This document shows, one piece after another, positions 1 to 15,246 of a DNA stretch of 38,008 bases; position 1 is the first letter of the stretch; every line of letters begins with the position of its first letter. This stretch comes from Acidobacteriota bacterium (GTDB lineage: Bacteria; Acidobacteriota; Vicinamibacteria; Vicinamibacterales; UBA2999), in the NCBI GenBank assembly GCA_022842985.1, contig JALHON010000010.1, positions 1-38,008 of the forward strand, given 5' to 3'. The position numbers and the translations under genes are program-made. The notes under the pieces are model-generated. The model was not told the origin of the DNA. It was given only the letters and a program-made list of their open reading frames with translations, and made no database searches.

Positions 1-3000
1 GCCGGCACCGCGGCGGCCGAGATCGTGGCCCTGGCGGGGCAGGGGCAGACGCGCGCGCCTGGCGTCGAGCCGTGGTCGCCCGCCCGGCTCGCGCAGCCAC
101 TGGGCGCGGGAGCCGACATGCGCACGCTGTCGCTGTCGTCAGCCGCGCTGCTGCTGGCCGACCGCACGCAGATCCGCATGGCCGCCAACGCGCAACTGCG
201 GCTCTGTGAATCGCAGCCCGCGCGCACTCTGCTCGAACTGATGGCCGGACGTGTGTGGGCGCGCACGAAGAAGACGCCGGCCGCGCTGCAACTGCAGACG
301 CCCGCCGCCGTGGCGGTCGTGCGCGGCACCGACTGGGACGTCGAGGTGGAGGCGGGAGGACGGACGACGCTGACCGTGCTCTCGGGGCTCGTGGAGCTGT
401 CGAACGCATTCGGCCGCGTCGACCTCGGGCCGGCGGAGCAGGGCGTCGTCGAACCCGGGCAGGCGCCGGTGAAGCGCCTGCTGGTCCGTCCACGCGAACG
501 CGTGCAGTGGGTCATGGCCTATCCGGGCAACACCACGCGCTGGGCGGAGTTCCAGCCCGCGAACATCCCCGCACCGCTCGCGGCGGTGCGCGCGGACCTG
601 CGGAGCGGCCAGTGGGTCAGCGCCCGGACACGTCTCGTGGCCCTGCCTGCGGCTCAGCGGGGCGCCGTGGCGGACCTGGTGCTCGCGGATCTGGAGGTCT
701 TCGATGGGCGCCTCGACATCGCGGAACGCCGCCTGGAGAGCGCCTGGCAGCGGACGAAGGACCCACGCCTCGCCGCCCGGCGGGCCGATCTGCTGATGGC
801 GCTCGACCGCAATGCCGAGGCGCGCACGTGGATCGAGACCACACGTTCGGCGGCGCCCGAGGCCGTGGAACTGCTGCTGGCCGATGCCGACTGGCATCGC
901 CTGGAGGGACAGGGCACGGCGGCGATCGCCCTCTATCGGGAAGCCCTCGCTCGCGCCGGGGGCGACGAGCTGCGTGCGCACGCCAGCTGGAGCCTGGGCC
1001 GCGCGCTGCAGGAGCGCGGCGACCTCCGGGCCGCCCGTTCGGCCCTGGCGCGCGCCGTGGCGCTCGCGCCCGACAATCCCGCATACCGCGGCGAGCAGGC
1101 CACCGCGGCCACCGAAGGGCTGCGCCTCGCCGACGCCCGTGCCGGCTTCGACGCGGCCCTGGCCCAGGCCGCCGACGACTACGTGAGCCTTGCGGGTGCG
1201 GGCCTGCTGGCGTTGACACGCGGCGACGCCGAGGCCGCGCGCGCGCAGCTGCTCAAGGCCCTCGTCATCGAACCGCGCTACGCCCGCGCGCACGTGTGGC
1301 TGGCCGAGGCCGAGTACCAGCTCGGCGAGCGGGCGGCGGCGCTCGACTCGCTCGAACGCGCGCGCCTCGCCGATCCGAAGGATCCGCTGCCATGGCAGGT
1401 CGAAGCCATGCTGCGCAACGACAGCGGCGAACCCGCGCAGGCGATCGCGGCCGCCCGCGAGGCGCTGACGCGGCTGCCCAATCTCAAGTCGCTCAACCCG
1501 CTGGCGTCGGACAGCCAGGGCTCGGCCAACCTCGGCAAGGCGCTCGGCGACGTCGGCATGGAGAACTGGGCGCGGGCGTATTCGAACGCGTCCTACTTTC
1601 CGCTCTGGGCCGGCAGCCACTTCTTCATGGCCGACCGCTACGAGAGCGACTTCAACCGCCGCTCCGAGCTGTTCCAGGGGTACTTGACCGACCCGACGGT
1701 GTTCGGCGCGAGCGACAAACGCGCGCCGCTGCTGCTCTCGACCGGGCGCGAATGGAACGCCACGACGAGCGCCGAGCGTAACCCGCTGCGCCACACGGCC
1801 ACGGCCGATCTGGGGCACCGCGGCTTCGCCGCCGGTCCCATGCCCGTGTCATGGCTCGTGCGCGTGAACGACGTGGAGATGTGGCCGCGCCAGGGCCCGG
1901 CGGCGTCCCGCTACCGGCTCGGATCGCCCGGGATCGATGTGGCCCTGGGCGCGCGGCCGAACGAGAGCCTGGCGCTGTTCCTGCTCCATGGCGACACCGC
2001 TCTCGCCTACCGCTTTCCCGAGGGGCTCGACCTCGGCAACGACATCACCTTCACCGGCGAAGCCGAGACCCGCACACGCCGCACCGACGCCGGCGCGTCG
2101 TGGCGCTGGTCGGCGCGGAGCCAGACGTGGCTGAAGGCCCACACCGGCCGCCAGACGTCGAGTCTCGTGCTCGACGACAGACGCTTCGGGCCGCAGGACT
2201 ATCGCTACACCGCCGACGAGCAGGGCGTCTTCCTGCACCACACCGTGCTCCTCGGCAGCCACCGCGTGAGCGGCGGCTGGGAGTCGGTCAGCCGCGACAC
2301 CCGCAGCGCGATCACCGACGCCGCCGTGGCGAGCCCGCGCACGAACACCGAGCGCTACGACCAGCCGTGGATCGCGAGCGAATGGCGTCGCGGCGCCTGG
2401 AGCCTGATGGCCGAAGCGTACTGGCCACGATTCACGACCGCGCAGAGCGATCGGTTCACCGACCCGGCGGGACAGGACCTGCTCGACCCGAAGCTCGACG
2501 CCGCCGCCCACCGCCGCCGCCCGCAGCCCCGCCTGGGCGCGAGTGTGCGTCTGGGGCCCGGACGCGCCCTGCACTGGGCCTATCAGGAAAGCCTGCGCGC
2601 GCCGGGCACGCACACGCTCGCCCCGGTCGCCACCGGCGCCATTCCCCTCGACAACCAATACATGCTCGCCGGCAGCCGGGCGCGCAAGCAGGCCGTACAG
2701 CTCGACTGGGAACTCGGCCCGGCCACGTTCGTCGGCGCCAGCCTGGCGGGTCAGCGCATCGACAATCTGGTCGCGCAGGACGGACGGCTCTTCGCGCAGA
2801 ACACCGGGGCCCTCTTCGACAACGTCGCAACGATTGCGCCCGTGGTGCTCAACGCGCAGACCACGCTCAACACCTACGAGGAGACGCCGATCTTCAGCCG
2901 CGGCGACCTGACGCAGACCATGGTGTCGGTCAACCGCCTGATCGGGGCACGCTGGAGCGCGTTCGGCCACTACATCCATTCCGACTCGCGCAACACGAAC

Positions 3001-3288
3001 CCGCGCTTTGCCGACAACCTGCTGCCCGGCTTCGCGCGTCACGTCTTCCTGGGCCAGACGACCTGGCGGCACGCGGCGCGCCGCTTCTCGCTGTTGCGGA
3101 TGACACACCGCGGCTTGCGCTACCGCGACGAGGCCAACACGGCGGAGCGCCTGCCCGGCTGGAGCCTGGCGCTGGCGCACCGATGGGAATCACCAGGCCG
3201 ACGCTGGAGCTTCACGGGTACCGTGCAGTCGGACCTGCGCCGCGGCGAGCGGCCGACGTTGTGGGCGCTCGTGCGGTACCGGGACTGA
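1..3288 (+). CDS. FecR-domain / TPR / outer-membrane beta-barrel-like protein (5' end outside window)
   Basis: ORF open to the left edge (frame 1; track starts at an internal GTG, 25). FecR-like segment (LELMAGRVWARTKK..LQLQTPAAVAVVRGTDWDVEVE), then TPR-like repeats, then ~500 aa of alternating aromatic/polar barrel-like sequence. Confidence 0.8.
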   Translation, partial: AGTAAAEIVALAGQGQTRAPGVEPWSPARLAQPLGAGADMRTLSLSSAALLLADRTQIRMAANAQLRLCESQPARTLLELMAGRVWARTKKTPAALQLQTPAAVAVVRGTDWDVEVEAGGRTTLTVLSGLVELSNAFGRVDLGPAEQGVVEPGQAPVKRLLVRPRERVQWVMAYPGNTTRWAEFQPANIPAPLAAVRADLRSGQWVSARTRLVALPAAQRGAVADLVLADLEVFDGRLDIAERRLESAWQRTKDPRLAARRADLLMALDRNAEARTWIETTRSAAPEAVELLLADADWHRLEGQGTAAIALYREALARAGGDELRAHASWSLGRALQERGDLRAARSALARAVALAPDNPAYRGEQATAATEGLRLADARAGFDAALAQAADDYVSLAGAGLLALTRGDAEAARAQLLKALVIEPRYARAHVWLAEAEYQLGERAAALDSLERARLADPKDPLPWQVEAMLRNDSGEPAQAIAAAREALTRLPNLKSLNPLASDSQGSANLGKALGDVGMENWARAYSNASYFPLWAGSHFFMADRYESDFNRRSELFQGYLTDPTVFGASDKRAPLLLSTGREWNATTSAERNPLRHTATADLGHRGFAAGPMPVSWLVRVNDVEMWPRQGPAASRYRLGSPGIDVALGARPNESLALFLLHGDTALAYRFPEGLDLGNDITFTGEAETRTRRTDAGASWRWSARSQTWLKAHTGRQTSSLVLDDRRFGPQDYRYTADEQGVFLHHTVLLGSHRVSGGWESVSRDTRSAITDAAVASPRTNTERYDQPWIASEWRRGAWSLMAEAYWPRFTTAQSDRFTDPAGQDLLDPKLDAAAHRRRPQPRLGASVRLGPGRALHWAYQESLRAPGTHTLAPVATGAIPLDNQYMLAGSRARKQAVQLDWELGPATFVGASLAGQRIDNLVAQDGRLFAQNTGALFDNVATIAPVVLNAQTTLNTYEETPIFSRGDLTQTMVSVNRLIGARWSAFGHYIHSDSRNTNPRFADNLLPGFARHVFLGQTTWRHAARRFSLLRMTHRGLRYRDEANTAERLPGWSLALAHRWESPGRRWSFTGTVQSDLRRGERPTLWALVRYRD

Positions 3289-3318
3289 CACCGGCCGGGT
3301 TCGCGTGCGGCGAGCACG

Positions 3319-4665
3319 TCAGGTGCGGCCTGGCGACACTGCCACCACCGTGGCCTGCACCGCATCGCCGAGCCGCGCCGCGATGCGGTCGATGTCGTCG
3401 GCGGTGGCGTTGTAGGGCGGCGCGACGATCGCGTGGTCGCCGAGACGGCCATCGATGGTGCCGCTGCTCGGATACACCGCCAGGCCATGCGCGAGCGCGA
3501 CCCGCTTGAGGCGCGCGGCGAACTGCACCGCGGGGTCGAACGGCGCGAGCGTGTCGCGATCGGCCACGAACTCGACCGCCTGGAACAGCCCGCGCCCGCG
3601 GATGTCGGCCACGTGTGGATGCGCGCCGAGGCGATCCCGCAGCGCGCCCATGAGCATCTCCCCGAGCCGGCGAACGTTCGCGACCAGATCCTCCTCGGCG
3701 ATGATCCGCTGCACCTCGAGCGCCGCGGCACACGCCACCGGATGCGCCTGGAACGTATGGCCGTGCGCGAAGGCGCCACTGCCCTGTTCGAGGGCCGCCA
3801 TCACACGCCGCGAGACGAGCATCGCGCCGAGCGGCAGATACCCGGCGCCGAGGCCCTTGGCCACAGCCTGCAGGTCGGGCGTGACGCCTTCCTGCTCCCA
3901 CGTGTGCATCGTGCCGCAGCGGCCCATGCCGCCCATGATCTCGTCCAGGATGAGCAGCGCGCCGTGGCGATCGCACACCTCGCGCATGGCCGCGAAGTAC
4001 CCGGGCTCGGCGGCCACGCAGCCGGCACTCGCCCCCACGACCGGCTCGGCGATGAAGGCGATGACCGTGCCCGGCCCCACGCGCTGGAACTCGGCCTCGA
4101 GCTCGGCGGCGAGCCGCGCCACGTACTGCGCGCTCGATTCGTGCGCCGGCTTGTGGCGGAAGGCGAAACACGGCGAGACGTGGCTCACGTGCGGCATGAG
4201 CATCGGCTCGTAGAAGCCGCGCCGGGCGGGATGTCCGCCCACTGAGAGCGCGCCGAACGTGTTGCCGTGGTAACTCTGGCGCCGGGCGATGAAGTGGAGC
4301 CGATCGGGCTCGCCGATCTCCACGAAGTACTGCCGCGCCATCTTCATGCAGGCTTCGACGGCTTCGGAGCCCGACGACACGAAGTACGCATGCGACAGCC
4401 CGCCCGGTTCATGCCCCACGAGCGTGTCGGCGAGCGCCTCAGCCGCCTCACACGTGAAGAACGACGTGTGCACGTAGGCGAGCGCGGAGGCCTGCCGGGT
4501 CATCGCGTCCACGACACGCTGCTGCCCGTGCCCGAGGCACGCCACCGCGGCGCCGCCCGACGCATCGATCACGGTGCGGCCATCGGCAAGCGTGATGGTG
4601 ATGCCCTCACCGCGCACGGCGAGGTCGAAGGACTGGCGGGTGGACCTGTGCAGGACGTGCGACAT
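3319..4665 (-). CDS. Class III (PLP-dependent) aminotransferase
   Basis: MSHVLHRSTRQSFDLAV.. with YFVSSGSEAVEACMKMARQY, LILDEIMGGMGRCGTMHTWE, AVAKGLGAGYLPLGA (PLP-Lys region), HGHTFQAHPVACAAAL. Start trimmed to ATG (cat 4663-4665). Confidence 0.93.
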   Translation of the reverse strand: MSHVLHRSTRQSFDLAVRGEGITITLADGRTVIDASGGAAVACLGHGQQRVVDAMTRQASALAYVHTSFFTCEAAEALADTLVGHEPGGLSHAYFVSSGSEAVEACMKMARQYFVEIGEPDRLHFIARRQSYHGNTFGALSVGGHPARRGFYEPMLMPHVSHVSPCFAFRHKPAHESSAQYVARLAAELEAEFQRVGPGTVIAFIAEPVVGASAGCVAAEPGYFAAMREVCDRHGALLILDEIMGGMGRCGTMHTWEQEGVTPDLQAVAKGLGAGYLPLGAMLVSRRVMAALEQGSGAFAHGHTFQAHPVACAAALEVQRIIAEEDLVANVRRLGEMLMGALRDRLGAHPHVADIRGRGLFQAVEFVADRDTLAPFDPAVQFAARLKRVALAHGLAVYPSSGTIDGRLGDHAIVAPPYNATADDIDRIAARLGDAVQATVVAVSPGRT

Positions 4666-10849: not shown

Positions 10850-12076
10850 ATGACACGCACGCGTGGGTTTCGTCCGGTGCTCTGGCTGGCGCTGCTGGCC
10901 GCGCTCGCGGTGGCGCAGGCACTCGTCAACGACGTGGCGGTGGCGCGCACGCAGGGCGCGAAGCAGGCCCCGCGCTACGAGGTCGATCCGCTGTGGCCGA
11001 AGCCGCTGCCGAATCACTGGGTGCTCGGCAACGCCATCGGCGTCTGGGTGGATGCCCGCGATCGTGTCTGGATCATCCACCGCGGGTCGTCCACCCTCGA
11101 CGGCAACGAACGCGCGCTCGAACTGAAGGCCGGGGACTGCTGCGCCGGCGCGCCGCCGGTGCTCGCCTTCGACATGCAGGGCAACCTGGTGCAGAGCTGG
11201 GGCGGGCCCGGTGAGGGCTACGACTGGCCCACCGGTAACCACGGCATCTTCGTGGACCACACCGGCATGGTGTGGATCGGCGGCAACGGCCCGGGCGACT
11301 CGCACATCCTCAAGTTCACGCAGGACGGCAAGTTCGTGGCGCAGTACGGGAAGCCGAACGCGCGCCAGACGGGCACGAGCCCGCAGGGCCAGCCCACCTA
11401 CGCGCCCGGCAGCAGCGATCCGACGAGCTTCGGCCGCGTGGCCAAGGTCTTCGTGGACCCGAAGGCCAACGAAGCCTACGTGGCCGATGGCTATCTGAAT
11501 CGCCGGGTGGCCGTGCTCGACGCCGCCACCGGAAAGATCAAGCGCTTCTGGGGCGCTTACGGCAAACCGCCGAACGACGCGCCCGAAGGCCGCTACGATC
11601 CGGCGGCGCCGCCCTCGCCCAACTTCCGCAACCCGGTGCACTGCGCGGATCTCTCGAACGACGGCTTCGTCTACGTCTGCGATCGGCTGAACGACCGGCT
11701 GCAGGTCTTCCGGCCCGACGGCACCTTCGTGAAGGAAGCCTTCATCGACAAGCACACGCGCGCCTCGGGCTCGGTGTGGGACGTGGCGTTCTCGAAGGAT
11801 CCGCAGCAGCGCTTCCTCTTCGTGCCGGACGGCATCAACAACCGCATCAACATCCTGCAGCGCGACACACTCGAAGTGCTCACCACGTTCGGCGACGGCG
11901 GACGCCAGCCGGGCCAGTTCTACGGCGTGCACAGCATCGCCATCGACTCGCGCGGCAACCTCTACACGACCGAAACGTGGGAGGGGAAACGCGTGCAGCG
12001 GTTCGTGAACAAGGGCCTGGCCCCGGTGACCCGGATGCACCAGGGCACCGTGTGGCCCACGGCACCGGCACGGTGA
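10850..12076 (+). CDS. Secreted NHL-repeat beta-propeller protein (peptidylglycine lyase-like fold)
   Basis: N-terminal signal/TM; repeated NHL-type blades (GIFVDHTGMVWIGGN, KVFVDPKANEAYVADGYLNRRVAVLDAATG, SIAIDSRGNLYTTETWEGKRVQRF); SD GGGAGG. Confidence 0.85.
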   Translation: MTRTRGFRPVLWLALLAALAVAQALVNDVAVARTQGAKQAPRYEVDPLWPKPLPNHWVLGNAIGVWVDARDRVWIIHRGSSTLDGNERALELKAGDCCAGAPPVLAFDMQGNLVQSWGGPGEGYDWPTGNHGIFVDHTGMVWIGGNGPGDSHILKFTQDGKFVAQYGKPNARQTGTSPQGQPTYAPGSSDPTSFGRVAKVFVDPKANEAYVADGYLNRRVAVLDAATGKIKRFWGAYGKPPNDAPEGRYDPAAPPSPNFRNPVHCADLSNDGFVYVCDRLNDRLQVFRPDGTFVKEAFIDKHTRASGSVWDVAFSKDPQQRFLFVPDGINNRINILQRDTLEVLTTFGDGGRQPGQFYGVHSIAIDSRGNLYTTETWEGKRVQRFVNKGLAPVTRMHQGTVWPTAPAR

Positions 12077-13332
12077 GCGCGTCGCCCGACGCCCGCCTGG
12101 CCCGCGATCGCCGCGGCGTCACCGGCCTGCTCGTGCTGCTCTTCGCGATCACGTACCTCGATCGCGTCTGCATCTCGGTGGCCGGGCCGCGTATTCAGGA
12201 AGATCTCGGCATCGACCCGGTGGGCTGGGGCTGGGTAACCGGCGTCTTCACCCTCGCCTACTGCCTCTTCGAGATCCCGACCGGCACGATGGGCGACCGG
12301 CTCGGGCCGCGCCGCGTGCTGACGCGCATCGTGACGTGGTGGTCGGGCTTCACCGCGCTCACGGGCGCGATGACGAGCTTCTATCCGCTGCTCGTCGTGC
12401 GGTTCCTGTTCGGGGCCGGCGAAGCGGGGGCCTTCCCCAACGCGTCGATCGTGGTGGCACGCTGGTTCCCGGCCTCGCGCCGCGCCACGATGTCGGGCGT
12501 GAACCTGATGGCGAGCCAGGTGGGCGGCGCCATCGCGCCGCTGCTCGTGCTGCCGATTCAGATGCGCTACGGCTGGCGCATGTCGTTCTTCGTCTTCGGC
12601 GCGCTCGGCCTGGTGTGGGCGGCGGCGTGGTACGCGTGGTTCCGCGACTCGCCCGCGGAGAAGTCCGGCGAGCCGGCCGCGGCGGACGCCACCACCACCG
12701 CGGCGCCCTCACACGGCGCCCACTTCCCGTGGCGCGCCGCCTTCGCGTCGGGCACGGTATGGGCGATCCTCGGCGCCGCCTTCTGCTACATCTACGTCTA
12801 CAACTTCTTCCAGACGTGGTTTCACACGTTCCTGGTGAAGGGCCGCGGCGTCACCGAAGGCGGCCTGCTGCTCTCCGCGCTGCCGTTCGTCGTGGCCGTG
12901 GCCGCGAACTTTGCCGGCGGCGCCGCGAGCGACGCCTGCGTGCGCCGGTTCGGCCCGACCGCCGGACGCCGCGCCGTGGGTGCCGTGTCGCTCATCACGG
13001 CCGCCGCGCTCGTGGCCGCCACGATGTTCACGACCCAGCCGATGCTCACCGTGGTGCTGCTGGCGCTCGCCTACGGCGCCATCACCTTCCAGCAGTCGGG
13101 CGTTTTCGGCGTCTGTCTGGATGTGGGCGGCGTGCACGCCGGCGCCATGGTGGGCCTCATGAACACCGTCGCGCAGGCCGGCGGCTTCATCGGCTCTGTC
13201 GCCTATGGCTACATCGTGGAGCGCACGGGCAGCTACGACGCGCCGTTCGTGCCGATGGTCGTGCTGCTGCTCGCCGGCGCCGCCTGCTGGCTGCGCGTGG
13301 ACGCCGGCCGCCCCGTGACGGCGAGTGCGTGA
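12073..13332 (+). CDS. MFS transporter, anion:cation symporter (ACS)-like
   Basis: GTG start overlapping previous stop (GTGA). ITYLDRVCISVAGPRIQEDLGI, GDRLGPRRVLTR, RFLFGAGEAGAFPNASIVVARWFPASRRATMSG; about 12 hydrophobic segments. Confidence 0.92.
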   Translation: MSASPDARLARDRRGVTGLLVLLFAITYLDRVCISVAGPRIQEDLGIDPVGWGWVTGVFTLAYCLFEIPTGTMGDRLGPRRVLTRIVTWWSGFTALTGAMTSFYPLLVVRFLFGAGEAGAFPNASIVVARWFPASRRATMSGVNLMASQVGGAIAPLLVLPIQMRYGWRMSFFVFGALGLVWAAAWYAWFRDSPAEKSGEPAAADATTTAAPSHGAHFPWRAAFASGTVWAILGAAFCYIYVYNFFQTWFHTFLVKGRGVTEGGLLLSALPFVVAVAANFAGGAASDACVRRFGPTAGRRAVGAVSLITAAALVAATMFTTQPMLTVVLLALAYGAITFQQSGVFGVCLDVGGVHAGAMVGLMNTVAQAGGFIGSVAYGYIVERTGSYDAPFVPMVVLLLAGAACWLRVDAGRPVTASA

Positions 13333-13335
13333 CAC

Positions 13336-13551
13336 GAGCAGTCGGGCTGGCGAGGGATCCGGTCGGCGGCGACTATGAGTCGTCGTCGCACAAGAGACCG
13401 ACACTCGCGCCGGGAGTGCGGGCGACACCCAGATCAGGGGCTGGGGGCCCCCAGAAGTGCTTTGGACGGCAGGACGAGTCGCCGGGAGGTGCGAGTGACC
13501 GACGCGACTCATCGGAGCCGACGGCCGGATCCCACGCCAGAACGGCTGCTC
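13336..13551. repeat. ~216-bp nested imperfect inverted repeat with central perfect palindrome
   Basis: Arms 13336-13382 and 13505-13551 (47 nt each, 38/47 complementary without gaps); inner pairs CACTCGC 13402-13408 / GCGAGTG 13491-13497 and GGCGAC 13421-13426 / GTCGCC 13479-13484; centre CTGGGGGCCCCCAG 13441-13454. Confidence 0.85.
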
Positions 13552-13642
13552 CAAGCGCAGGCTCGTCCCCGGTAATTTCTTGTCTGCGCGGCCCCCGCCC
13601 GGCCCGAAACCCCCTCCGCCCGTGAGACCATCGGATGAAGGC

Positions 13643-13667
13643 GGTAGATGCCTGCCATGCATCTGCC
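13643..13667 (+). promoter_or_regulatory. Small hairpin just upstream of the amine oxidase start codon
   Basis: GGTAGATGC-ctgccat-GCATCTGCC (9-bp arms with one G-U wobble), ending 10 nt before ATG 13678. Confidence 0.35.
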
Positions 13668-13677
13668 TCATTGATCT

Positions 13678-15246
13678 ATGTCCCCACGTCTCGCGCGCTC
13701 GTCCCGGCCGGTACTGACCCGCCGCTCCTTCCTCGAACATCTCGGCGCCGTTGGCGGCTCCTCGCTCGTCATGACGGCCCTGAGCTCCTGGGACCTCATG
13801 GCCGAAGGCGCCGGCCAGCGACCCGCGCTCACTGGACGTCCGGCCAAGGCGCGCGTGCTCATCCTGGGCGCCGGCACGTCGGGCCTGGTCGTGGCCCACG
13901 AGCTCGTGAAACTCGGCTACGACGTCCACGTGCTCGAGGCACGCAACCGCGTGGGCGGCATCGCGTGGAGCGTGCGCAAGGGCGCGACACACACCGAACT
14001 CGGCCCCGGCGGCGAAACGCAGGTCTGCACCTGGGACGAAGGCCAGTACGTGAACGCCGGCGCCTGGCGTATCCCGCACTCGCACAGCGGCATCCTCGGC
14101 TACTGCCGCGAACTCGGCGTGCCGATGCAGGTGTTCCTCAACGATTCGGACGCCAACTACTTCTATTACGAAGGCGCCGCCGCCGGCACGCTGGCCAACC
14201 GGAAGATCCGGATGCGCGAGGTGAAGGCCGACATCACCGGCCAGGTGAACGAACTGCTGGTGAAGGCGATCGACCAGAAGCAGCTCGACCTGCCGATGAC
14301 GGCCGACGACCAGAAGCGGCTCACCGACTTCCTCGTGCGTCAGGGCTACATGGACGCCTCGACGCGCACCTACAAGGCGTTCGCCGACCGCGGCGAGGGC
14401 GATCCCCTCAAGCTCGCGGCGTTGCTCGAAGCCGGCTTCGGCAACCGTCTGCGCTCGGTGCCGCCGATGGAAGGCACGGCCGCGGCGCCGATGTTCCAGC
14501 CGGTTGGCGGCATGGACCAGATCTGCCAGGCGTTCGCGCGCGCCATCGGCCCGAAGCGGCTCACCTTCAACGCCGCCGTGGAGTCGGTGCACCAGGACGA
14601 CACCGGCGTGAAGGTGGTCTACAAGAATACGAAGACCGGCAAGAAGACCGAACTCACGGCCGACTACGTGGTGGCGTGCCTGCCGCTCTCGATCCTGTCC
14701 GGCATCGACATCAACCTCTCGGACACGATGATGCAGGCCGTGAAGCGCGTCACCTACAGCGACAGCGCCAAGATCGGCCTGGCCATGAAGCGCCGCTTCT
14801 GGGAGGAAGACGATCGCATCTTCGGCGGCCACCTCTATTCCGATCTGCCGATCGGCCAGTTCTCGTACCCGTCGCACGACTACTTCACGAAGAAGGGCGT
14901 GCTGCTCGGGCTCTACTCGAACGGACCGATCGCCGACCTCATCGAGCGGCCGATCGCGCAGCGTGTCGAACACGTGCTGACGCACGCAAGCAAGGTGCAT
15001 CCGCAGATCCGCGCCGAGTTCGAGAGTGCGTACGCCGTCTTCTGGAAGAAGGTGCCGTACAGCAACGGCGGCTACGCCACCGTGCGCGCCGTGTCGCTGC
15101 GCGAGCAGATCTCGAAGGTGGAGAACCGCATCGTCATCGGCTCAGCGGCCACCGCGCCGCGATCGCTGCCCGACTGGCAGGAGGGCGCCGTCGCCGCCGG
15201 ATGGCAGGCGCTGCAGTCGGTCCACGAACGCGCCATGCGCGGATAG
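13678..15246 (+). CDS. Tat-exported FAD-dependent amine oxidase (flavin monoamine oxidase family)
   Basis: Twin-arginine start (TRRSFLEHLGAVGG); Rossmann ARVLILGAGTSGLVVAHELVKLGYDVHVLEARNRVGG; C-terminal IVIGSAATAPRSLPDWQEGAVAAGWQAL. Confidence 0.9.
   Translation: MSPRLARSSRPVLTRRSFLEHLGAVGGSSLVMTALSSWDLMAEGAGQRPALTGRPAKARVLILGAGTSGLVVAHELVKLGYDVHVLEARNRVGGIAWSVRKGATHTELGPGGETQVCTWDEGQYVNAGAWRIPHSHSGILGYCRELGVPMQVFLNDSDANYFYYEGAAAGTLANRKIRMREVKADITGQVNELLVKAIDQKQLDLPMTADDQKRLTDFLVRQGYMDASTRTYKAFADRGEGDPLKLAALLEAGFGNRLRSVPPMEGTAAAPMFQPVGGMDQICQAFARAIGPKRLTFNAAVESVHQDDTGVKVVYKNTKTGKKTELTADYVVACLPLSILSGIDINLSDTMMQAVKRVTYSDSAKIGLAMKRRFWEEDDRIFGGHLYSDLPIGQFSYPSHDYFTKKGVLLGLYSNGPIADLIERPIAQRVEHVLTHASKVHPQIRAEFESAYAVFWKKVPYSNGGYATVRAVSLREQISKVENRIVIGSAATAPRSLPDWQEGAVAAGWQALQSVHERAMRG

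What the first reader, a model, noticed from the sequence alone, without database searches (positions are those of the whole stretch)
13336..13551. Nested ~216-bp imperfect inverted repeat in the longest structured intergenic gap
Four bases after the MFS stop begins a 47-nt arm GAGCAGTCGGGCTGGCGAGGGATCCGGTCGGCGGCGACTATGAGTCG. The reverse complement of 13505-13551 is GAGCAGCCGTTCTGGCGTGGGATCCGGCCGTCGGCTCCGATGAGTCG, identical at 38/47 positions without gaps. Two further inner pairs (CACTCGC/GCGAGTG, GGCGAC/GTCGCC) and a central perfect 14-bp palindrome CTGGGGGCCCCCAG share roughly the same axis. Neither neighbouring CDS explains it. Candidates: a dispersed non-autonomous element (MITE/REP-like), a long structured 3'UTR/ncRNA, or a bidirectional hairpin.
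Basis: seen in the sequence. Interest (0 to 1): 0.8.

Follow-up and report, generated by a model that had tools for sequence, protein, structure and literature searches.

The report
Dispersed Acidobacterial hairpin-RNA repeat family
The inverted repeat is one of about two dozen copies, in this genome, of a previously uncatalogued mobile repeat whose one strand is kept by selection as a long folded RNA-like hairpin across a whole order of Acidobacteria, so it is a candidate new non-coding RNA family with unknown job.

Summary
The element (13336-13551) is a dispersed repeat: about 24 copies in the own genome and 1-16 in each of four congeners. Covariance models find it in 29 of 162 genomes of the order (18 genera), and none outside the order in a 396-genome phylum sample. 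It is not in Rfam 15. Of 55 consensus pairs, 48 show two-sided compensatory changes (94.7% of cells paired; 38-44% when slid). Wobbles are strand-specific: 102 G-U against 15 A-C in the outer stems. So the folded + strand is what selection sees, not a DNA palindrome. Pairing also holds between copies at orthologous sites (81 changed pairs kept, 31 broken). The repeat is mobile: this copy is absent at the orthologous site of a congener, and copies in several families carry CCCGGATNATTCATGAA-like terminal repeats. The 3' end abuts a gene while the 5' side is gene-poor (39 vs 4 copies), and close pairs are divergent (6 of 8), two bracketing defence-like genes. Best reading: a MITE-born structured RNA. 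Transcription and function are inferred; ssDNA folding remains a rival.

The parts
13336..13551 (+). whole structured element (this copy), 216 bp
   Evidence: longest inverted repeat; covariance-model match 13344-13544 on + strand; absent at the orthologous site of congener G001
13336..13369 (+). 5' arm of outer stem P1; sequence differs from copy to copy but stays paired with the 3' arm
   Evidence: 25 of 25 P1 pairs show changes on both sides
13518..13551 (+). 3' arm of outer stem P1
13375..13382 (+). P2 5' side (ATGAGTCG), pairs with 13505-13512 (CGACTCAT)
   Evidence: sequence; helices 2-4; replaced by other paired sequences in subfamily B
13505..13512 (+). P2 3' side
13402..13411 (+). P3 5' side (CACTCGCGCC), pairs with 13488-13497; becomes GAAAAACGCGCC-type sequence in other genera with pairing kept
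   Evidence: helix 5: 10 of 11 pairs compensatory, 98% paired
13488..13497 (+). P3 3' side (GGTGCGAGTG)
13421..13426 (+). P4 5' side (GGCGAC), pairs with 13478-13483 (GTCGCC)
   Evidence: helix 6
13478..13483 (+). P4 3' side
13437..13452 (+). apical hairpin GGGG-CTGGGGGC-CCCC, the most conserved part of the family
   Evidence: helix 7 pairs kept in 35-36 of 36 sequences; loop seen in nearly all sequences
12052..13332 (+). upstream neighbour: MFS transporter; stop 3 bases before the element
   Evidence: Pfam MFS_1 7e-51
13678..15246 (+). downstream neighbour: flavin amine oxidoreductase
   Evidence: Pfam Amino_oxidase 1.5e-45

Best explanation
A small non-autonomous (MITE-like) mobile element that carries a structured non-coding RNA. 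Shown: it is dispersed in many copies, has inserted and is absent at orthologous sites, some copies keep terminal inverted repeats, and its + strand fold is preserved by strand-specific compensatory change, including after insertion, at orthologous sites. Inferred: a transposase acting in trans moves it as DNA; each copy is transcribed from the + strand as a roughly 190-220 nt RNA, a long hairpin whose variable but always paired outer stem presents the inner loops and the near-invariant NUGGGGGN apical loop to a protein or RNA partner in trans. It is probably not a cis element of its neighbours, because the same fold and the same wobble bias are found whatever the neighbours' orientation.
For: Copies. 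Covariation: 48/55 pairs with two-sided changes, 508 cells vs 154 shuffled, score 0.706 vs 0.166, slid controls 38-44% paired. Strand: G-U 102 vs A-C 15 in g1 outer stems; 101 vs 19 over the whole fold, order-wide; + strand MFE lower in all 21 order-wide loci. Retention after insertion: orthologous pairs 42 double changes kept, 39 single changes kept, 31 broken (sites). Mobility: the window site is empty in G001, the L010 site empty in four congeners and the L047 site in two; TIRs with CTAG-type duplications in G015 and in recent G001 copies; related TIRs in loci L187, L193, L195 from other families.
Against: No transcript data. No promoter box upstream and no T-run downstream. No transposase partner identified (IS1380 found in only one of six genomes searched; Y1 uncorrelated). 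No Rfam relative. G-T wobble could also be tolerated by folded single-stranded DNA. The order-wide alignment A4 was fitted to the model's structure, which favours pair counts, although the arm-to-arm count does not use that model. The L019/L043 comparison, orthologous by one flank only, supplies 15 of the 42 double changes.
Confidence: 0.6

Rival explanations
1. The + strand folds as single-stranded DNA: a structure-specific substrate for an HUH/Y1 or tyrosine-type recombinase (as REP/REPIN, IS200/IS605 ends or integron attC do), and selection keeps it mobilisable.
For: One-strand folding is also what such systems need; the repeat is mobile; close pairs are divergent.
Against: Y1 transposase genes do not track the element: none in G036, G051 and G050, which have 4-6 copies, and 11 in G028, which has two, and no element lies beside 27 Y1 loci. 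Terminal repeats and 4-bp duplications look like a DDE transposon, not IS200/605. The fold is kept even in copies without visible terminal repeats.
Confidence: 0.2
2. A terminator, insulator or mRNA-stability hairpin placed at gene 3' ends.
For: The 3' end lies close to a neighbouring gene (median about 46 nt in other genera) and that gene is convergent in 53 of 79 cases (p 0.003).
Against: It would be the minus strand in that gene's mRNA, while wobble bias is on the plus strand in all layouts; no T-run; such elaborate conserved loops are not needed for termination.
Confidence: 0.1
3. A neutral palindromic MITE whose arms are kept alike by template switching or gene conversion, not by selection.
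For: Copy-specific arms that match each other are what arm correction would give.
Against: Correction makes perfect arms and cannot favour G-U over A-C; 102 vs 15, where the null is symmetric between strands. Conserved unpaired loops across the order.
Confidence: 0.04
4. Chance inverted repeat in a GC-rich gap.
For: High GC makes short inverted repeats common.
Against: z -7.8, homologous copies, covariation.
Confidence: 0.005

Closest known systems
Structured bacterial MITEs: ERIC, Correia/NEMIS, bcr1 (catalogued in PMC2267715; bcr1 paper J Bacteriol 2004 186:7714 seen only as a title in its reference list)
   Same: 100-250 bp, tens of copies, mostly intergenic, mobile-element features, conserved fold; Yersinia ERIC regulates neighbours by folding into RNA hairpins according to PMC2267715
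   Different: No relation detected in Rfam, plasmids or phages. Outer stem differs in sequence between copies with pairing kept; the fold is strand-specific; maintained across an order of Acidobacteriota; CCCGG-type ends with 4-bp CTAG-like duplications
REPINs mobilised by RAYT/TnpA-REP (PMC3116915, PMC8266576, abstracts only)
   Same: Dispersed palindromic non-autonomous repeat
   Different: Far longer, complex internal fold, no Y1 transposase association
Integron attC sites (from own knowledge)
   Same: Strand-specific hairpins with variable paired sequence; some copies flank single genes
   Different: Terminal GTTRRRY/RYYYAAC boxes not seen by eye; conserved part is the centre, not the ends; close pairs are mostly divergent, not direct
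Rfam structured RNA families
   Same: Covariance-supported fold with conserved loops
   Different: No match at or near gathering scores

Membership tests
MITE (non-autonomous DNA transposon derivative) | short, non-coding, multi-copy, dispersed | tested here: met
   about 24 copies in G000, 8-16 in three congeners, 9-10 in G015
MITE (non-autonomous DNA transposon derivative) | terminal inverted repeats and target-site duplication | tested here: inconclusive
   clear in G015 and recent G001 copies and in L187/L193/L195; not detectable in most copies, including the window copy (none in G000)
MITE (non-autonomous DNA transposon derivative) | insertion polymorphism (empty sites) | tested here: met
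   window site empty in G001; two further sites empty in congeners
MITE (non-autonomous DNA transposon derivative) | autonomous partner with the same ends | tested here: inconclusive
   none found; PF13701 not in G015 or the searched g1 genomes; L215 IS3/IS110 are insertions in another repeat; other transposase families not searched
Structured non-coding RNA family | covarying conserved secondary structure | tested here: met
Structured non-coding RNA family | structure specific to one strand | tested here: met
Structured non-coding RNA family | is transcribed | not testable with these tools
   no expression data; no promoter match
Cis-regulatory RNA (riboswitch, leader) | fixed position upstream of genes on the same strand | tested here: not met
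   all layouts occur: <E>< 15, >E>< 13, >E>> 10, <E>> 4
REP/REPIN-RAYT | association with a Y1 (RAYT) transposase | tested here: not met
Integron attC | R' GTTRRRY and R'' boxes at the ends; IntI; arrays of direct repeats | tested here: inconclusive
   ends read by eye lack the boxes, close pairs mostly divergent; IntI was not searched
Known Rfam families | score above gathering threshold | tested here: not met

The most novel reading that the evidence does not exclude
The structured element is the end-piece of an undescribed kind of cargo-carrying mobile islet: two copies in divergent orientation bracket variable genes (a CAP12/Pycsar-type TIR effector in G003, an ATPase-like gene of weak defence-like similarity in a low-GC islet in G161), the 3' ends face the conserved chromosome, and the folded strand, as RNA or ssDNA, takes part in moving or fixing the cassette.
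Probability: 0.2. Interest if true: 0.85.

Novelty: new variant of a known kind. Interest (0 to 1): 0.62.

Why it matters
It would add a well-supported, order-wide structured RNA family to a major, largely uncultured soil phylum, and it links two usually separate things: a mobile repeat and an RNA fold that is maintained after insertion. That makes it possible to ask whether a MITE was domesticated as a multi-copy RNA, or whether the fold serves the element itself. If the paired copies bracket defence cargo, it would also give a sequence handle for finding small defence islets in these genomes.

Tried and rejected
Rfam at gathering and at relaxed thresholds: no relative. Sigma-70 promoter and terminator scans and upstream AT profile: nothing consistent. 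IS1380 transposase as the mover: not in G015 or the searched g1 genomes. IS3/IS110 in G015 C25 as the mover: they are insertions in a second MITE. RAYT as the mover: no correlation. CTAG at stop codons as the reason for gene proximity: stop-codon usage at the sites (TAG 22 of 37) is like background (50 of 99), so only suggestive. tRNA genes as targets: a few sites only. GC difference between 5' and 3' flanks: none on average (p 0.77), so the flank asymmetry rests on native-coding density, judged by a codon-usage gene caller of my own. Phage, plasmid and viral-contig searches: no match. Literature searches found no description of this family.

Full report
OBSERVATION. Folded as RNA, the + strand of 13330-13560 reaches -133.6 kcal/mol against -99.1 +/- 4.5 for dinucleotide shuffles (z -7.8). 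The - strand is weaker, -117.1, z -5.0.

DISPERSED REPEAT. blastn against the own genome (4.97 Mb, 469 contigs) gives about 23 copies at 70-94% identity, and a covariance model gives about the same number, fragments counted. Several copies sit at contig ends, so the true number may be higher. The four other genomes of the genus have 1 to 16 copies each. There are two subfamilies in the genus (A, like the window; B, with GACTCTGAGCGCGGCG), and a few copies with a shared insert of about 40 nt beside the apical hairpin.

FOLD UNDER SELECTION. Aligning copies showed that the outer arms differ between copies while the two arms of each copy still match. On 42 copies, RNAalifold proposes 55 pairs, 23 with two-sided changes. 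Model R1 reached two other genera of the family, R2 reached 29 of 162 genomes of the order in 18 genera, and R3 found no genome outside the order among 396 drawn from the phylum. On 36 order-wide sequences 94.7% of cells pair, 48 of 55 pairs have two-sided changes, and the covariation score is 0.706 (0.166 when shuffled, 0.07-0.13 when slid). Helix P3, for example, is CACTCGCRCC/GGYGCGAGTG in the window genus and AAAAACGCGCC/GGCGCGTTTTT-like elsewhere. The apical GGGG-NUGGGGGY-CCCC unit is nearly invariant.

WHICH STRAND. In the outer stems of the genus, mismatches that are G-U on the + strand number 102, and those that would be G-U on the - strand number 15. Over the whole fold and the whole order the counts are 101 and 19, the latter at the level of random mismatch types. 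Mutation is symmetric between strands in this respect, so this is selection on the + strand fold. A DNA palindrome, a bidirectional hairpin, or arms kept alike by template switching would not show it. A folded + strand of ssDNA could.

KEPT AFTER INSERTION. Many copies lie at the same site in sister genomes. Between such orthologues, of 112 changed pairs 42 changed on both sides and 39 on one side with pairing kept, and 31 were broken. The L019/L043 comparison is orthologous on one flank only and contributes 15 of the 42.

MOBILE ORIGIN. At the window's own site, congener G001 goes from the MFS stop directly to the shared sequence GGTAATTTCTTGTCT upstream of the amine oxidase, without the element. 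Two more sites are empty in congeners. In genus g12 (G015) recent copies at about 94% identity end in CCCGGATNATTCATGAA-like inverted repeats, with CTAG/CTAA/CCAG-type 4-bp repeats outside, ends shared with a second MITE of that genome. Two recent copies in G001 show ends CTAG|CCCCG...CGGGG|TTA, and loci L187, L193 and L195 of other families carry related ends. Most copies, including the window's, have no visible terminal repeats although their fold is intact. No transposase partner was found.

CONTEXT. Neighbour orientation is mixed, so it is not a leader or riboswitch of one pathway. The 3' end abuts a gene and the 5' side is open: native-coding fraction in 1 kb is 0.61 on the 5' side and 0.94 on the 3' side in the genus (39 copies against 4, p 9e-8), repeated in other genera (27 against 8, p 0.0016). 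Orthologous copies are counted separately there, so the p-values are somewhat generous. The 3' neighbour is convergent in 53 of 79 cases. Close pairs of full copies are divergent in 6 cases, tandem in 2 and convergent in none (p 0.004 for the divergent share; with weak and truncated copies 9, 3, 0, positions). I tallied these pairs by hand from the hit lists. Where sister genomes can be compared, the 3' flank is shared in cases where the 5' flank is not, and never the reverse. Two divergent pairs bracket low-GC islets: in G003 C159 a CAP12/Pycsar-type TIR protein (Pfam 9e-27; PADLOC hits), in G161 C23 a 606-aa ORF with a weak AAA_16 match. The window copy is a single element and does not show such an islet.

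MECHANISM. I commit to a mobile element that carries an RNA which the host lineage keeps. Dispersal, insertion, fold and strand are shown; transcription, partner and job are inferred. The nearest competitor is a folded ssDNA substrate for a recombinase.

TAXONOMY. Single-contig members of 7.5 and 6.5 Mb would fit Luteitalea, that is Vicinamibacterales; this is my inference.

Noticed in passing
L303 (G003:C159) 857-2653; L304 (G161:C23) 1406-4331: Divergent element pairs bracket low-GC islets, with a CAP12/Pycsar-type TIR effector gene and a 606-aa ATPase-like gene respectively: possible small defence islets.
   Followed up: partly
L306 (G000:C143) 2972-3861: Two copies in tandem, 690 bp apart, flank a glyoxalase/bleomycin-resistance-type gene between a gamma-glutamyltranspeptidase and a PQQ dehydrogenase gene; the same backbone genes flank copies in G001, G003 and G004 with different content between, so this looks like an insertion hot spot.
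   Followed up: partly
L169, L172, L177 (G015): A second, about 250-bp long-hairpin MITE with the same CCCGCAC/CCTGGAT...ATTCAYGAA ends; some copies of the RNA element sit inside it, and an IS3 plus an IS110 sit inside another copy (L215).
   Followed up: partly
L146 (G015:C45:92296-92530): One copy of the element appears to interrupt a P-type ATPase-like gene (reading of the flanking sequence by eye).
   Followed up: no
L016, L019, L024 (probably also G001 C34/C35, G003 C33): Copies of both subfamilies carry a similar insert of about 40 nt (GGACACCACCCC...GGGGGCCC), itself hairpin-like, beside the apical loop.
   Followed up: no
L015, L017, L020, L044, L079: Several copies lie within a few hundred bases to about 1.4 kb of tRNA genes (Leu, Val, Gly/Cys, Leu, Lys), some directly downstream on the same strand.
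   Followed up: no
window 13560-13680 and L262: GGTAATTTCTTGTCT and CCGTGAGACCATC are conserved with G001 upstream of the amine oxidase gene, likely its promoter region.
   Followed up: no
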